Shown piece after piece: positions 33,192 through 38,770 of a DNA stretch of 64,000 bases; within the stretch, counting starts at the first letter, position 1; the number at the start of each line of letters is the position of its first letter. Location: contig NZ_LR593887.1 in the NCBI RefSeq assembly GCF_901538355.1, forward strand, positions 5,184,920 through 5,248,919, given 5' to 3'. A model generated the notes under the pieces. It was not told where the DNA came from, did not search any database, and saw nothing but the letters and a program-made list of their open reading frames with translations. This stretch comes from Tuwongella immobilis. GTDB taxonomy: Bacteria; Planctomycetota; Planctomycetia; Gemmatales; Gemmataceae. The position numbers were made by a program, and so were the translations under genes.

Positions 33192-35554
33192 GCAATAAGC
33201 CACACTCCCCGACGATTCCCCTCGACCCCGCCCGCGAATCGTCTGCCCCGCGTGCTGTTCCCCCCGAGACGTTCACCGGCCTGGAAATCAGCGAACCGCA
33301 CACCACCGCCGCGGGAATTCCGGCGGTCGTCAACTCGATGGACCACGTCTTTCGGCAGATGGGGCTTCTGCGGGGTGCCCGAGCGCTGACGCTGCTCAAT
33401 CAGTCCGGCGGCATCGACTGCATGAGTTGCGCGTGGCCCGATCCCGACTCGCATCGATCGTCTGCCGAATTTTGCGAGAATGGTGCCAAAGCCGTTGCCT
33501 GGGAAGGGGATACGCGCAAATGCGGGCCCGAATTCTTTCGCGCCTGGAGCATTTCCGCGCTGGCCGAGCAATCCGATTACTGGCATGGCCAACAGGGGCG
33601 CCTGACGCAGCCGATGATTCTGCGACCCGGAACGCAGCACTACGCACCGATCGAATGGGACGCCGCGTTTGAGTTGATCGCCGCCCATCTCAACGCATTG
33701 GCGACGCCGGATGAGGCGATTTTCTATACCTCGGGCCGCACCAGCAACGAAGCGGCATTTCTGTATCAATTATTTGTGCGACAATTCGGCACCAACAATC
33801 TGCCCGATTGCTCGAACATGTGTCATGAATCGAGCGGAGTCGCACTCGGCGAGAGCATCGGGTTGGGCAAAGGCACGGTCACGCTCGACGATATTCACGA
33901 TACCGATGTCCTGGTGATTATCGGGCAGAATCCCGGCACCAACCATCCGCGCATGCTCACCTCGCTGCAAGTTGCGAAAGAACGCGGCGCGAAGATCATC
34001 GCCATCAATCCGTTGCCCGAGGCGGGGTTCATCCGCTTCAAGCATCCGCAGCGAGTCGGCGATTTACTCGGCAGCGGCACCGCACTGATGGACCTGTTCT
34101 TGCAGGTGAAAATCGGCGGGGACGAAGCACTGCTCAAAGGGATCGGCAAAGCGTTGTTGGAACGCGAAGCCAGCGCGCCCGGCAGTGTCGTCGATCGCGG
34201 ATTCATCGCCGAGCAAACTGCGGGATGGGACGCCTACGAAGCCAGCTTGCGCGATGCCGATTGGGGCACGCTGGTCGACCAATCCGGCGTGAGCGAATCC
34301 GAAATCCGTCAAGCCGCCGAGCTGCTCGCGGGCACCTCGCGCTTCATCACTTGCTGGGCGATGGGGCTCACGCAACACCCCAATAGTGTGGCGATTATTC
34401 AGGAAATTGCCAACATTCATTTGATGCGCGGTGCAATCGGCAAGCCCGGCGCGGGTCTCTGCCCGGTGCGGGGCCACTCCAACGTGCAGGGCGATCGCAC
34501 GATGGGCATTTACGAGAAACCCAGCGAGCAATTTCTGAATCGTCTCGCGGCGAGTTTCGATTTTCAGCCACCGCGCGCGCCCGGTTTCGACACCGTGGAA
34601 GCGATTCAAGCCATGCACGACGGCAAGGGGAAAGTCTTCTTCGCGCTGGGGGGGAATTTCCTCTCGGCGACACCCGACACGGAGTTCACCGCCGCCGCAC
34701 TGCGACGCTGCCAACTGACGGTGCATGTTTCCACCAAGTTGAACCGCTCGCATTTGGTGACGGGCGAAACCGCGCTGATTCTCCCCTGCCTGGGTCGCAC
34801 CGAAATCGACGATCAGGCCAGCGGGCCGCAACTGGTCACCTGCGAAAATTCGATGGGCGTGGTGCAAACCAGTCAGGGGCGGCTCTCCCCCGCATCGGGC
34901 TATTTGCTAAGCGAAATTGCGATTGTCTGCCGATTGGCCCGCGCCACACTCGGCGCAACCAATCCCGTGGATTGGGAAGGCTTTACGGACAATTACGATC
35001 GCATCCGCGATGCCATCGAACGCACCATCCCCGGCTTCGACCGCTACAACGAGCGCGTACGGCACAAGGGCGGCTTCTACCTGCCCAATGGCCCACGCGA
35101 AGGGCGATTCACCACCGTCAGCGGCAAAGCCCAATTCACCACGCACGAGCTGCCCATTCGTCGGCTCAACCCCGGCGAACTCGTGATGATGACCATCCGC
35201 ACACACGATCAATTCAACACCACAATCTACGGATTGGACGACCGCTACCGAGGCATCCACAACGAACGGCGGGTGATTCTCATGCACGCCGACGATATCG
35301 CCGAGCGCGGCCTGTCTGCGGGGACCGTGGTGGACATTCACAGCCACTTTGACGGCGTTCGACGCACGGCCATTCGCTTGATCGTCGTGCCGTATGCCAT
35401 TCCGCGCGGCAACGTCGCCACCTATTTTCCGGAAACCAACGTGCTGGTACCGCTGCATAGCACCGCGAAACGCAGCAATACGCCGACCTCGAAATTCGTG
35501 ATCGTCACCGTTGAGCCATCGGCCAATCCGGTGCCAACCACCGCCAACGACTGA
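33188..35554 (+). CDS. FdhF/YdeP-type molybdopterin oxidoreductase
   Basis: 788 residues. The N-terminal Cys set IDCMSCAWPDP…EFCENGAK has C-x2-C and a third Cys but not the full four-Cys set of formate dehydrogenases, which is typical of the YdeP branch. The expected Mo-ligand site reads CSNMCHESSG, with Cys-His in place of Sec/Cys-His of FdhF. Further family blocks are VIIGQNPGTNHPRML, INPLPEAGFIRF and GLCPVRGHSNVQGDRTMG (MGD binding). The C-terminal molydop-binding barrel has RTHDQFNTTIYGLDDRYRG. It probably oxidises or reduces a small formate-like or acid-stress-related substrate in the cytoplasm; substrate unassigned. Overlap with fdhD supports a sulfurated cofactor. Confidence 0.9.
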   Translation: MSNKPHSPTIPLDPARESSAPRAVPPETFTGLEISEPHTTAAGIPAVVNSMDHVFRQMGLLRGARALTLLNQSGGIDCMSCAWPDPDSHRSSAEFCENGAKAVAWEGDTRKCGPEFFRAWSISALAEQSDYWHGQQGRLTQPMILRPGTQHYAPIEWDAAFELIAAHLNALATPDEAIFYTSGRTSNEAAFLYQLFVRQFGTNNLPDCSNMCHESSGVALGESIGLGKGTVTLDDIHDTDVLVIIGQNPGTNHPRMLTSLQVAKERGAKIIAINPLPEAGFIRFKHPQRVGDLLGSGTALMDLFLQVKIGGDEALLKGIGKALLEREASAPGSVVDRGFIAEQTAGWDAYEASLRDADWGTLVDQSGVSESEIRQAAELLAGTSRFITCWAMGLTQHPNSVAIIQEIANIHLMRGAIGKPGAGLCPVRGHSNVQGDRTMGIYEKPSEQFLNRLAASFDFQPPRAPGFDTVEAIQAMHDGKGKVFFALGGNFLSATPDTEFTAAALRRCQLTVHVSTKLNRSHLVTGETALILPCLGRTEIDDQASGPQLVTCENSMGVVQTSQGRLSPASGYLLSEIAIVCRLARATLGATNPVDWEGFTDNYDRIRDAIERTIPGFDRYNERVRHKGGFYLPNGPREGRFTTVSGKAQFTTHELPIRRLNPGELVMMTIRTHDQFNTTIYGLDDRYRGIHNERRVILMHADDIAERGLSAGTVVDIHSHFDGVRRTAIRLIVVPYAIPRGNVATYFPETNVLVPLHSTAKRSNTPTSKFVIVTVEPSANPVPTTAND

Positions 35555-35608
35555 TGCCCCGCCGACTTGCCAATTCGCGCCACGGGGCGTAGAATCACGA
35601 GACGAACC

Positions 35609-35656
35609 CACCGGGGAGGACGACCTCTCCGGTGTCTGCAATTTGGGGACGACCCC
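35609..35656 (+). ncRNA. Guanidine-II (mini-ykkC) riboswitch
   Basis: Two hairpins, each capped by the diagnostic ACGA tetraloop closed by G-C pairs. P1 (35609-35634) has an 11-bp stem with one G-U pair and loop ACGA at 35620-35623. P2 is ggggACGAcccc (35645-35656), and a 10-nt linker joins them. This is the known guanidine-II layout, in which ligand binding makes the two ACGR loops kiss. It lies 21 nt before the gdx start codon. GGGGAC of P2 (35645-35650) can also pair with GTCCCC (35668-35673), which touches the GGAG ribosome site (35665-35668). A switch that frees the ribosome site when guanidinium is bound is therefore plausible. Confidence 0.93.
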
Positions 35657-35677
35657 GCCATTTCGGAGTCCCCGATC

Positions 35678-35998
35678 ATGGCATGGATTACCCTGGTGGT
35701 GGCTGGCATTTTCGAGATTGGTTGGGCCATCGGCCTGAAATACTCGCAAGGCTTCACCCGCCCACTTCCCACGACGCTCACCATTTTGTCGATGATTATC
35801 AGCATGGGCTTGCTGGGCATGGCCGCACGGACATTACCCGTGGGCACTGCCTACGCCGTCTGGACTGGCATTGGTGCCATCGGTACCGCACTGCTGGGCA
35901 TCTACCTATTCGAGGAACCGGCCACCACGGCGCGGCTGGTCTGTCTGGTGCTGATCGCAGCGGGAATTGTCGGCCTGAAAATCGTCACACCGACATGA
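35678..35998 (+). CDS. gdx: Guanidinium exporter Gdx (SugE), SMR family
   Basis: 106 residues, four transmembrane helices. ATG 35678 has GGAG 9 nt upstream. The essential Glu13 is present ([14 protein letters not shown]). The Gdx-type signature [14 protein letters not shown] separates it from the multidrug EmrE subgroup. It functions as an antiparallel dimer exchanging guanidinium for protons. The guanidine-II riboswitch directly upstream confirms the substrate assignment. It is unlinked in function to the upstream oxidoreductase and likely has its own transcript. Confidence 0.95.
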
Positions 35999-36026
35999 TG
36001 AATTCGCCAGCTATGGCAAGCGCACT

Positions 36027-36065
36027 CGGCCAGAATGGACGGAGTGATTCCGCCGATTCTGGCCG
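36027..36065. terminator. Convergent hairpin terminator candidate
   Basis: A perfect 10-bp stem cggccagaat/attctggccg with a 19-nt loop sits between gdx (+) and the LRR kinase (-). No T-run. Confidence 0.65.
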
Positions 36066-36103
36066 ATGGAATATCTGCTGAACATCGGGAAATGCGCGAG
36101 CGG

Positions 36104-38770
36104 TCAAGGTGCCGGTGGTGGCACGGGCGACTTCCAAAACTGCTCAGCCGGCACGCCATTGATATGCGTTAGCGTCGGAATCTTCTTCAGAATCGCCGCA
36201 TCGCGATCCGGCACCACATCCGCAACGAGTGCCTGCAGGGGCACGCCCACCAAGGGGGAAAAATCCGTTACCGGCGTCACATCGCAGCGCAACACCCGCA
36301 GCGACGAAACATTCCGCAGCGGCTCCAGACTCGCCACTTTCGTATCTCGGAACGATAGATTCCACACATTCTTTAATGTGGCGACCGGGGCGAGGTCGTT
36401 CACCCCCGATGAATTCATGTGCAAGATGCGAAGTTCTGGCATTGATTCCACACAGGCAATCGAATCGAAGACGGGATTGCCCCCCAGATTCAAGAATCGC
36501 AGGTCCAATCCCCGAAGTGGGTCGAGTGTGGAGTTATCGCCTTTCCAATACCACAAATCCAATTCGGTAATTTTCAACCCGCGAAGCGCCCGCAATTCGG
36601 GTTGGGCAGCTCGCAACGCCAAGGACTGCAATGTCTTCTGATCGTACAACGGAGTAAGCGAAATCGTCGGATCATGTCGCAGAGAAAGATTCAGCAACTG
36701 CGGCATATTCCGAGTCCATTCCAGATCCGGACAATACGCGGAACTGAAGTCAACGATGACGGTCGCGGTCGAGGCCAAGCTATCCCATCCCATGATTTTC
36801 ACGAAATTGGGAGCCCCCAGCGAGCGGATTCGCAAATCGCGGACCACTTCCAGATCGAGCGTGTGCGCGACGGGCGGCCTCGAATCGATCGTCAGTTCAC
36901 CAATGGGCAGCACCAGATGCAAAGGACCGAAATTGAGCCCCTCATCGAATGGCAAGGTGATGCTTGGCAGACCATTGGGCTGAATTTTACAGTAATAGAT
37001 CTTTTCGAGCGATGGATTGCAGGCCCAGAATTCGGCGTGGAACCGATCGACTAACTGCGTCATCGTCGCGCCGAACATCGCTTCGCGCATCTGCTGATAT
37101 TTGAATCGCTCGGCGGCCACCCAATCCCGATACTCGGCCGTACCGGGAATCCGCTTTGGAGTTCCCGGTGTCGGCTGCGGAATCGAAGGCAGTTGCGGCA
37201 AATTCTCGTAGGGATTGCGAATAATCGGCCGATGATCTGTCGGCAGCGGCACCAATTGCGGCAGCGATGCCACATCCGGTTCGTTGGGGTTGCCCCCCTC
37301 CTGGCGGGTGGTTGACCGCGGAATGCGCGTACCCATCAATCCAGCCAGCAGGAACGCACCGGCCAAACTTGCCACCAAAATGATTCCGCCGGTGAGTGCG
37401 AATCGACTCCAGCGGCGGCGTGCCCCTTCTCGACGGACCAACTGCGTATTTTCATCCGGCGGCAGCACCGTTCCCGGCTTGATCGGCGTCAGCCGTCGCA
37501 CCGACACGTTCATATGCCCGTTGGATTCGGATTCTGCTCGTTTGAAATCGGCCCACAATTCCTCGAATACGGCGACCATTTCTTGCGAATTGGCAAAGCG
37601 GTCTTCCGGTCGTTTGGCCATCAGTTTATCGATGAGCCACGCCAACCAATCGGGCACTTCGGAGCGCAGTTCGGCCAGCGGGCGATGATTTTCCGTCGCC
37701 ACGCTCATCAGCACGGCCAGCGTGTTGGATGCCTGGAACGGCGGCGTCCCCGCGACCATCGTGTACAGCACACTGCCCAAGCTGAACTGATCCGCACGGG
37801 TATCGACGGCAATTCCTTGCGCTTGCTCGGGGGCCATGAACATGGGTGTGCCCACGACAAACCCGCTTTGGGTGATGCTGGCATCATCGATTTTTCGAGC
37901 CAACCCGAAATCGGTGATCTTCACCCGTGGCTCGACCCCTTGATCCAGCAGGATATTCGCCGGCTTGATATCGCGGTGAATCATGCCGATGGCATGGGCG
38001 GCGGCGATTCCGCGGGCGATTTGCATCCCCAGCCGCAGCACTTCGCCAATGGGCAACGGGCCGCGTTGCTGAATACGTTGATGCAGGGTTTGCCCCTGAA
38101 TGCATTCCATCACCAGAAACGGCACGGGATTTTCTTCGACAGCGTAGATCACCACCACATTCTCTTGGTGGATGGCCGCTGCCGCCCGAGCCTCGCGGAC
38201 GAACCGATCGCGTGCTTCCGCCGTCACCGCCAGCGTGGGATGCATCGCCTTGATCGCCACCATGCGGTGGAGCTTTTCGTCAAAGGCGCGAAAGACGACG
38301 CCGAATCCGCCCGCACCGATAATCGACAAAATTTCGTAGCTTCCCAATCGGCCCAAGGCATCGGCTCGCGATGCTGGCCCAAGATAGGGGTGATCTTTGG
38401 GCGGGGATTTGGAATCCGACTGCCCCACGCCGGGCAGGAGCGTAATCATTTCGCTGGGGGTAGCGACCGATTCTTCTGGTGAGAGCGTAGGTTTATGCCC
38501 ACGCAAGAATCGGACAAAGGTAGACTCTCCGTGCGGTTCAATGGCGTGTTCTGGTAGCAGATCAATGCCCGCGTCGAGCGTCTTGGGAGCTGGCGCGGCA
38601 GCACGCGGACTCGCAGGGGGAGTTTTCGCGTCCTTCAGGAGTTGTTCTACTTGGCGTTGAAGCTCCAAGTCTCCTTGGCAAAGCTGCACCAACAGGGCGG
38701 CGCGATCGCCACCCATTTGTTGTCGGGCCACCTCGGCAATCGCCTGGGCGATGCTTACCCGATCAGACAT
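36104..38770 (-). CDS. Membrane Ser/Thr kinase with C-terminal leucine-rich repeats
   Basis: 888 residues from ATG 38768-38770, with GGAGG 6 nt upstream. A short N-terminal helical region and a Pro/Ala linker precede the kinase (~145-405): glycine loop GAGGFGVVFRAF, VAIKAM, catalytic loop HRDIKPANIL, DFG and GTPMFMAPEQ. One transmembrane helix (GGIILVASLAGAFLLAG, ~465-482) puts the C-terminal part outside. After a Pro-rich spacer, leucine-rich repeats fill ~690-870 (LTPLYDQKTLQSLAL, LRFLNLGGNPVFDSI, LRVLRCDVTPVTDFSPL). The architecture is that of a receptor kinase with an external LRR sensor. All catalytic residues are present. Ligand unknown. It is divergent from hslV. Confidence 0.9.
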   Translation of the reverse strand: MSDRVSIAQAIAEVARQQMGGDRAALLVQLCQGDLELQRQVEQLLKDAKTPPASPRAAAPAPKTLDAGIDLLPEHAIEPHGESTFVRFLRGHKPTLSPEESVATPSEMITLLPGVGQSDSKSPPKDHPYLGPASRADALGRLGSYEILSIIGAGGFGVVFRAFDEKLHRMVAIKAMHPTLAVTAEARDRFVREARAAAAIHQENVVVIYAVEENPVPFLVMECIQGQTLHQRIQQRGPLPIGEVLRLGMQIARGIAAAHAIGMIHRDIKPANILLDQGVEPRVKITDFGLARKIDDASITQSGFVVGTPMFMAPEQAQGIAVDTRADQFSLGSVLYTMVAGTPPFQASNTLAVLMSVATENHRPLAELRSEVPDWLAWLIDKLMAKRPEDRFANSQEMVAVFEELWADFKRAESESNGHMNVSVRRLTPIKPGTVLPPDENTQLVRREGARRRWSRFALTGGIILVASLAGAFLLAGLMGTRIPRSTTRQEGGNPNEPDVASLPQLVPLPTDHRPIIRNPYENLPQLPSIPQPTPGTPKRIPGTAEYRDWVAAERFKYQQMREAMFGATMTQLVDRFHAEFWACNPSLEKIYYCKIQPNGLPSITLPFDEGLNFGPLHLVLPIGELTIDSRPPVAHTLDLEVVRDLRIRSLGAPNFVKIMGWDSLASTATVIVDFSSAYCPDLEWTRNMPQLLNLSLRHDPTISLTPLYDQKTLQSLALRAAQPELRALRGLKITELDLWYWKGDNSTLDPLRGLDLRFLNLGGNPVFDSIACVESMPELRILHMNSSGVNDLAPVATLKNVWNLSFRDTKVASLEPLRNVSSLRVLRCDVTPVTDFSPLVGVPLQALVADVVPDRDAAILKKIPTLTHINGVPAEQFWKSPVPPPAP

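What the first reader, a model, noticed from the sequence alone, without database searches (positions are those of the whole stretch)
35609..35673. Guanidine-II riboswitch controlling gdx in a planctomycete
Two hairpins with ACGA tetraloops (loops at 35620-35623 and 35649-35652) and a 10-nt linker lie 21 nt before a Gdx guanidinium exporter. The P2 hairpin ggggACGAcccc matches the known consensus exactly. P2's GGGGAC can alternatively pair with GTCCCC at 35668-35673 beside the ribosome site, giving a simple translational switch. As far as I know this class is described mainly from Proteobacteria, so its presence here would extend its range or indicate transfer with gdx.
Basis: partly seen in the sequence, partly recalled or inferred. 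Interest (0 to 1): 0.75.

Follow-up and report, generated by a model that had tools for sequence, protein, structure and literature searches.

The report
Guanidine riboswitch before planctomycete exporter gene
A short RNA switch that senses the toxic nitrogen compound guanidine sits just before a guanidine-pump gene in what looks like a planctomycete bacterium; it is a clear member of a known switch family, and following it up showed the same kind of switch before a different family of pumps whose natural job is still debated.

Summary
Confirmed. Window 35612-35656 matches Rfam RF01068 (Guanidine-II) at 45 bits (gathering score 32), the window's only match at that threshold and the genome's only match. 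It lies 21 nt before a SugE/Gdx-type exporter (129.2 bits, cut-off 126), behind a promoter-like site and without a terminator-like one. It recurs: 27 of 392 sampled genomes of the phylum match, 22 over cut-off. P1 and P2 covary across 19 leaders. Of 51 over-cut-off hits in 37 genomes, 22 (window included) precede gdx, 18 guanidine import/breakdown genes, one a creatininase-like gene, one a PACE transporter, 9 no marker. Verdict: new member of a known kind, in a host group not named in the papers I could search. Side result: in one alphaproteobacterial family 39 of 74 PACE loci carry a paired-ACGR leader (23 of 70 scanned pass Rfam); with plasmid and G152 rows, 45 of 64 inside one PACE branch have it, 0 of 19 outside.

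The parts
35567..35595 (+). sigma-70-like promoter: TTGCCA, 17 nt, TAGAAT; would start the RNA a few nt before P1
   Evidence: 10 of 12 consensus positions; 1 found in 35450-36150, mean 0.3 in shuffles; a consensus match only
35609..35634 (+). P1 hairpin, 11 pairs, ACGA loop 35620-35623
   Evidence: RF01068 hit; P1 covariation in relatives
35612..35656 (+). Rfam Guanidine-II aptamer match (RF01068, 45 bits, model 1-48 of 48)
35635..35644 (+). 10-nt linker between P1 and P2
35645..35656 (+). P2 hairpin, GGGG-ACGA-CCCC, loop 35649-35652
   Evidence: P2 covariation in relatives
35643..35650 (+). 5' strand of a possible OFF helix (UUGGGGAC) that excludes P2
   Evidence: not conserved in relatives
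35665..35668 (+). Shine-Dalgarno GGAG
   Evidence: 9 nt lie between it and the ATG
35668..35675 (+). 3' strand of the possible OFF helix (GUCCCCGA)
35657..35682 (+). rival ribosome-site hairpin (35657-35661 with 35678-35682; 35663-35666 with 35672-35675), compatible with P1+P2
35678..35998 (+). gdx: SMR exporter of the SugE/Gdx type, 106 aa
   Evidence: NF008512 129.2 bits, cut-off 126; PF00893; 6wk5 122.5 bits; EmrE chains about 42

Best explanation
A Guanidine-II (mini-ykkC) riboswitch in the 5' leader of gdx that raises translation of the exporter when guanidinium is present. Its own promoter probably starts the RNA just before P1. Guanidinium binding to the two ACGA loops lets P1 and P2 kiss, which holds P2 closed; in the favoured but uncertain version (about even odds) P2's 5' strand is then no longer free to pair with GUCCCCGA beside the Shine-Dalgarno. 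Shown here: the aptamer, its covariation in relatives, the gene, no terminator-like site. Inferred from the family: ligand, kissing, ON direction. The OFF structure is inferred from folding only. The confidence given is for aptamer plus ON control of gdx, not for the OFF helix.
For: RF01068 45 bits, eighth by bits of the 40 places listed for the phylum sample; SugE equivalog directly downstream, with E13, W16, S42, Y59 and W62 present (that these residues matter in Gdx is recalled); promoter-like site and no terminator-like site; the same arrangement before gdx in 22 of 51 over-cut-off hits, window included; covariation score 0.446 against 0.190 shuffled and at most 0.147 when slid, 28 two-sided cells against 8.3; OFF helix 8 bp, P1+OFF -33.9 against P1+P2 -28.1 kcal/mol for these helices alone; P2-segment pairing to the ribosome-site region beats 97.8% of 500 single-base shuffles; forming P1+P2 lowers the predicted cost of opening the ribosome site from 12.7 to 8.2 kcal/mol with 9 nt from the start of gdx.
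Against: That 4.5 kcal/mol effect has shuffle p 0.10 and shrinks to 0.4 when 30 nt from the start of gdx are folded. With all other pairs allowed in 35605-35690, the P1+P2 state (-40.4) beats the P1+OFF state (-38.4) because a hairpin over Shine-Dalgarno and AUG joins it, so the ligand-bound state is also predicted to be closed. The OFF helix is significant in 1 of 22 leaders of related genomes, the window's own. In one search the number of pairs with a two-sided change (6) is not unusual (4.5 shuffled, 76 of 500 as high). [quoted passage not shown] PMC7544219 (passages) gives 7-40. No binding or expression data.
Confidence: 0.9

Rival explanations
1. Same Guanidine-II aptamer but another expression platform (not exclusive with the class assignment): the ribosome site is held in its own hairpin (35657-35682), or paired to P1 and linker, and ligand binding acts through that or through RNA stability, not through the P2/GUCCCC helix.
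For: The hairpin is part of the predicted optimum once the start codon is included. Eight leaders of the window's family show ribosome-site hairpins of different sequence (by inspection); local folding beats 80% of shuffles in 10 of 22 leaders. In 14 of 33 named leaders, but 1 of 22 of related genomes, pairing of P1 plus linker with the ribosome-site region has p<0.05; the window has p 0.072.
Against: Only 3 of 22 leaders pass p<0.05 for the local hairpin; it can coexist with P1+P2, so no switching logic follows from it.
Confidence: 0.3
2. A decayed or inactive remnant of a transferred riboswitch-gdx unit.
For: Gdx tree unresolved, Guanidine-II exporters of related genomes scattered among proteobacterial ones; best identity in the capped list of named relatives is to alphaproteobacteria, 72-74%.
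Against: Both loops and the GG/CC closing pairs are intact, the score is well over cut-off, gdx is intact, and P1/P2 covary in relatives.
Confidence: 0.04
3. Chance hairpins in a GC-rich leader.
For: The window is 59% GC, and other loosely defined pairs of ACGR hairpins occur in it. The small model does give false hits: over-cut-off matches inside coding frames in G403 and G511.
Against: E 1.1e-5, position before gdx, recurrence before gdx in relatives, covariation.
Confidence: 0.01

Closest known systems
Guanidine-II riboswitch (mini-ykkC, Rfam RF01068) before sugE/gdx
   Same: Two ACGR hairpins with GG/CC closing pairs, short linker, directly before the ribosome site of gdx; full-length model match.
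   Different: Host looks like a planctomycete; the review read in passages says mostly Proteobacteria (PMC12186494). P1 is long (11 pairs), the linker short (10 nt). Predicted coupling to the ribosome site: 4.5 kcal/mol in the window (shuffled 1.4), mean 2.4 in 22 leaders of related genomes (shuffled 1.1), mean 5.1 in 33 named leaders (shuffled 1.5).
Guanidine-III riboswitch (ykkC-III, RF01763) before gdx
   Same: Same gene family: 19 of 196 genomes of the window's class match, 18 over cut-off, and the 10 loci fetched all have Gdx downstream.
   Different: Different fold (an H-type pseudoknot, abstract of PMC5696562 in the listing); no match in the window's genome. All 11 Guanidine-III Gdx rows fall in one 13-row branch.
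Gdx-type SMR transporters with solved structure (6wk5 and others)
   Same: 122.5 bits over 103 residues. That 6wk5 is a guanidinium exporter of the Gdx type is recalled; the record says 'Multidrug resistance protein, SMR family'.
   Different: Different organism; no transport data for this protein.

Membership tests
Guanidine-II riboswitch (RF01068) | Covariance model score over the gathering score | tested here: met
   45 against 32 bits, model 1-48 of 48
Guanidine-II riboswitch (RF01068) | Two hairpins with ACGR loops and GG/CC closing pairs | tested here: met
   GGACGACC at P1 and P2
Guanidine-II riboswitch (RF01068) | Helices conserved by compensatory change in relatives | tested here: met
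   19 leaders: 95.6% of cells paired (82.5 shuffled), 28 two-sided cells (8.3 shuffled), score 0.446 (0.190); 6 of 12 pairs with two-sided changes, which 76 of 500 shuffles also reach
Guanidine-II riboswitch (RF01068) | Next to the ribosome site of a guanidine-related gene | tested here: met
   21 nt before gdx
Guanidine-II riboswitch (RF01068) | Binds two guanidinium ions cooperatively; loops kiss | not testable with these tools
   needs in-line probing or calorimetry
Guanidine-II riboswitch (RF01068) | Translational ON switch through ribosome-site access | tested here: inconclusive
   direction fits, strength depends on the length folded, shuffle p 0.10
Gdx guanidinium exporter (SMR) | Over the curated SugE cut-off (NF008512) | tested here: met
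   129.2 against 126 bits
Gdx guanidinium exporter (SMR) | E13, W16, S42, Y59, W62 (set recalled from the literature) | tested here: met
   all five present in the window protein
Gdx guanidinium exporter (SMR) | Exports guanidinium against protons | not testable with these tools
   needs a transport assay

The most novel reading that the evidence does not exclude
Following the switch out of the window: Guanidine-II riboswitches also control a clade of PACE transporters (PF05232), in one genome of the window's class (G152) and widely in the alphaproteobacterial family sampled. That clade would be a second family of small guanidinium exporters, and guanidinium (or close relatives) would be its physiological substrate. 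Whether older gene-association tables already list this pairing could not be checked.
Probability: 0.6. Interest if true: 0.75.

Novelty: new member of a known kind. Interest (0 to 1): 0.42.

Why it matters
For the finding itself: guanidine sensing by the smallest guanidine riboswitch, with exporters and degradation operons, recurs in a phylum that the papers I could search do not mention for it. The side result matters more: PACE pumps are known for expelling chlorhexidine (a biguanide; chemistry recalled), and their physiological substrates are treated as open, with short-chain diamines proposed (PMC9045395, passages). A guanidine sensor in front of one PACE clade names a testable substrate.

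Tried and rejected
Naming the organism: the genome is 6,690,754 bp in one contig; Tuwongella immobilis is given as 6.7 Mb (PMC8567305, passage), but identity was not shown and is not claimed. Gdx tree for transfer: 122 rows, 106 columns, quick method; 54 of 119 inner branches open, no starred set holds the window's row; not usable for the direction of transfer. The OFF helix as a conserved mechanism: rejected, p<0.05 in 1 of 22 leaders of related genomes and 7 of 33 named ones. One search used a wrong constraint (it barred the P2 strands from any pairing); its 'forbidden' column is void and was replaced. The 9 of 51 hits without a marker gene: two of G403 and one of G511 lie inside long coding frames and are taken as false; G162, G431, G553 and three of G271 were left unexplained. 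In one search the distance for L118 is off because its locus is cut by the contig end; one search gives 20 nt. A creatininase gene behind a Guanidine-II hit was seen in one genome only (G113). A DNA search of the leader against plasmids gave only short matches at E 0.3 or worse. PACE survey limits: the nine plasmid loci were picked from the 25 best rows of 183, not at random; 30 loci came and 44 were fetched by place, 74 loci in 73 of the 76 genomes with a match. Of the other three, G598's own PACE (L204) was looked at apart and has no leader, and G679 and G733 had no place listed and were not examined. L278 was too short for the PACE tree and was dropped (it has no leader).

Full report
What is there. 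The RF01068 covariance model finds it at 45 bits (gathering score 32, E 1.1e-5), the only match at the gathering threshold in the 64-kb window and the only match in the 6.69-Mb genome. The paired GGACGRCC core occurs once in the window; loosely defined pairs of ACGR hairpins occur four times, against 0.175 on average in simulated windows.

Its setting. The downstream gene is a 106-residue SMR protein over the curated SugE cut-off (129.2 against 126 bits), closest among solved structures to 6wk5 (122.5 bits), with EmrE chains at about 42 bits. A promoter-like TTGCCA-17-TAGAAT (10 of 12) ends at 35595, a few bases before P1, and no terminator-like site was found in 35450-36150. This fits translational rather than transcriptional control. 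Upstream on the same strand lie an FdhF/YdeP-type oxidoreductase and FdhD.

Is it conserved? In an even sample of the phylum 27 of 392 genomes match at E<=0.001, 22 over the cut-off; in the class 24 of 198, 22 over; in the family 10 of 95, all over. These scans used stricter filters that lose some weak matches. So it is widespread but patchy. Pooling the over-cut-off hits gives 51 in 37 genomes: 22 precede Gdx (window included), 18 have genes of guanidine import or breakdown downstream (eight substrate-binding proteins, three permeases, seven UAAP1, two of these about 600 nt away), one a creatininase-like gene, one a PACE transporter, and 9 no marker gene; three of the 9 lie inside coding frames. 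RNAalifold on 19 gdx leaders recovers P1 and P2. The pair counts exceed all 500 shuffles for cells paired (95.6% against 82.5%), two-sided cells (28 against 8.3), further pair types (20 against 13.3) and covariation (0.446 against 0.190); slid versions reach at most 0.147. The number of pairs with a two-sided change does not stand out (6 against 4.5; 76 of 500 shuffles as high).

How it works. From 35684 on, a hairpin over Shine-Dalgarno and AUG (35657-35682), compatible with P1+P2, enters, and the P1+P2 state is then predicted slightly better (-40.4 against -38.4 kcal/mol for 35605-35690). This is the main doubt, because the ligand-bound state would then be closed too. Scored against 500 single-base shuffles of the ribosome-site region, the P2 segment's pairing has p 0.022 in the window, but the window is the only one of 22 leaders of related genomes to pass 0.05, against 7 of 33 named leaders; pairing of P1 plus linker passes in 1 of 22 and 14 of 33 (window p 0.072). 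A second test asked whether holding P1 and P2 closed makes the ribosome site easier to open. In the window the cost drops from 12.7 to 8.2 kcal/mol with 9 nt from the start of gdx, but only from 9.9 to 9.5 with 30. With 9 nt, closing P1+P2 helps by at least 1 kcal/mol in 14 of 22 leaders of related genomes and 30 of 33 named ones, and hurts in 0 and 1. Part of this is expected of any sequence: against shuffled ribosome-site regions the effect is 4.5 against 1.4 in the window (p 0.10), 2.4 against 1.1 on average in the 22 (none at p<0.05) and 5.1 against 1.5 in the 33 (11 at p<0.05). So the ON direction fits the class, clearly in the named, mostly proteobacterial leaders and weakly here. Published models place the anti-Shine-Dalgarno in the linker (PMC9094411, PMC9300104, passages) or in a stem overlapping P2 and the ribosome site (PMC5486947, passages); the window resembles the latter.

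Origin. In a capped list of 80 named relatives the nearest Gdx proteins are alphaproteobacterial, 72-74% identity (records near the window may be left out there), and 33 of the 80 loci hold a paired-ACGR pattern within 400 nt of gdx, one of them an armatimonadete (L099, origin printed). The tree of 122 Gdx proteins does not place the window's protein firmly; Guanidine-II exporters of related genomes need 12 changes of label, the Guanidine-III ones 3. Co-transfer is possible, not shown. In the same class 19 of 196 genomes match Guanidine-III, 18 over cut-off, and in the 10 loci fetched Gdx follows. One genus holds Guanidine-II in one genome and Guanidine-III in two; their Gdx proteins sit in different branches, so this looks like different gene-switch pairs rather than a swap of switch.

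Degradation operons. In one family elsewhere in the phylum (f15) Guanidine-II copies, often two facing away from each other, stand before an ABC importer and before UAAP1, UAAP2, a urea-type carboxylase and allophanate hydrolase. This matches the guanidine carboxylase pathway described in PMC12186494 (passages).

The PACE lead. In G152 the switch (35.2 bits) ends 22 nt by its core, 19 nt by the model's end, before a PACE transporter (143.2 bits, cut-off 80); G152 is the only one of 198 genomes of the class with PF05232. Of 183 plasmid records with a relative, nine of the best 25 were fetched: four have RF01068 over the cut-off directly upstream, one at 31.4, just under, and four none. In 345 genomes of the family of G598, reached through a locus titled Rhodobacteraceae, 76 carry PF05232. 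Of 74 loci examined in 73 of these genomes, 39 have the paired core within 110 nt of the start; of the 70 scanned with Rfam, 23 are over the cut-off, so 16 of the 39 rest on the pattern alone. In a quick tree of 83 PACE proteins all 45 with the leader fall on one side of a branch (64 rows, SH-aLRT 99), and 0 of the 19 rows on the other side have it; the tree is rooted at its midpoint. Shuffled leaders show the pattern in 6 of 16,800. The leaders share a short P1 and a C-rich start of the linker (by inspection). Covariation is weak because the stems hardly vary: 2 of 8 pairs with two-sided changes in 37 of the 45 leaders. On print: three searches (10 of 17 papers listed, 6 papers listed, 25 of 547 listed) and passages of five papers show no statement of this link, but most of the listed papers were seen only as listings and the founding papers of the class were not held, so priority is open.

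Literature limits. No held paper combines guanidine, riboswitch and Planctomycet*, or Guanidine-II riboswitch and Planctomycet*. That covers open-access text only; Rfam's own member list could not be read and may already include planctomycetes. All papers cited were seen as passages or listings, none in full.

Verdict. The finding is real and correctly named. It is a new member of a known riboswitch class before its usual gene, in a host group not named in the papers searched. The most interesting thing reached from it is the PACE association.

Noticed in passing
L186:5919-5967 (-), L195, L197, L200, L202; L206-L270: Guanidine-II leaders before PACE efflux transporters: 39 of 74 loci of one alphaproteobacterial family by pattern (23 of 70 over the Rfam cut-off); with plasmid and G152 rows, 45 of 64 inside one PACE branch and 0 of 19 outside.
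   Followed up: yes
L158-L167, L137, L146, L152, L153, L157: Guanidine-III riboswitches before gdx in the window's class, 19 of 196 genomes; the 11 Gdx rows tested fall in one 13-row branch.
   Followed up: partly
L183:5057-15939: Guanidine catabolic cluster elsewhere in the phylum: two Guanidine-II copies, ABC importer genes, UAAP1, UAAP2, carboxylase, allophanate hydrolase.
   Followed up: partly
L179:651-1461 (-): Guanidine-II directly before a creatininase-family gene (PF02633, 214 bits), facing away from a switch before a substrate-binding protein; seen in one genome.
   Followed up: partly
L144:1403-1515 and L150:1402-1515: Paired-ACGR leaders before gdx with long linkers (36 and 34 nt) that seem to hold an extra hairpin.
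   Followed up: no
L111-L114, L116, L118, L126, L156, just before the gdx ATG: Ribosome-site hairpins of differing sequence but similar shape (for example AACGC/GCGUU, CACGC/GCGUG) in the window's family (by inspection).
   Followed up: partly
L187:3776-6652 (-): Repeats in a 958-aa coding frame that imitate tandem Guanidine-II hits over the gathering score; a source of false positives for this small model.
   Followed up: partly
window 35577-35590: A further ACGG-loop hairpin overlapping the promoter-like site, upstream of the likely RNA start; probably chance.
   Followed up: no
G000:C1:4469849-4470160: A second, weaker SMR gene in the window's genome (78.7 bits, below the SugE cut-off); the genome shows no Guanidine-II match besides the window's and no Guanidine-III match.
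   Followed up: no
L099 (Fimbriimonadaceae, Armatimonadota): A paired-ACGR leader before gdx in an armatimonadete; by pattern only, not scanned with Rfam.
   Followed up: no
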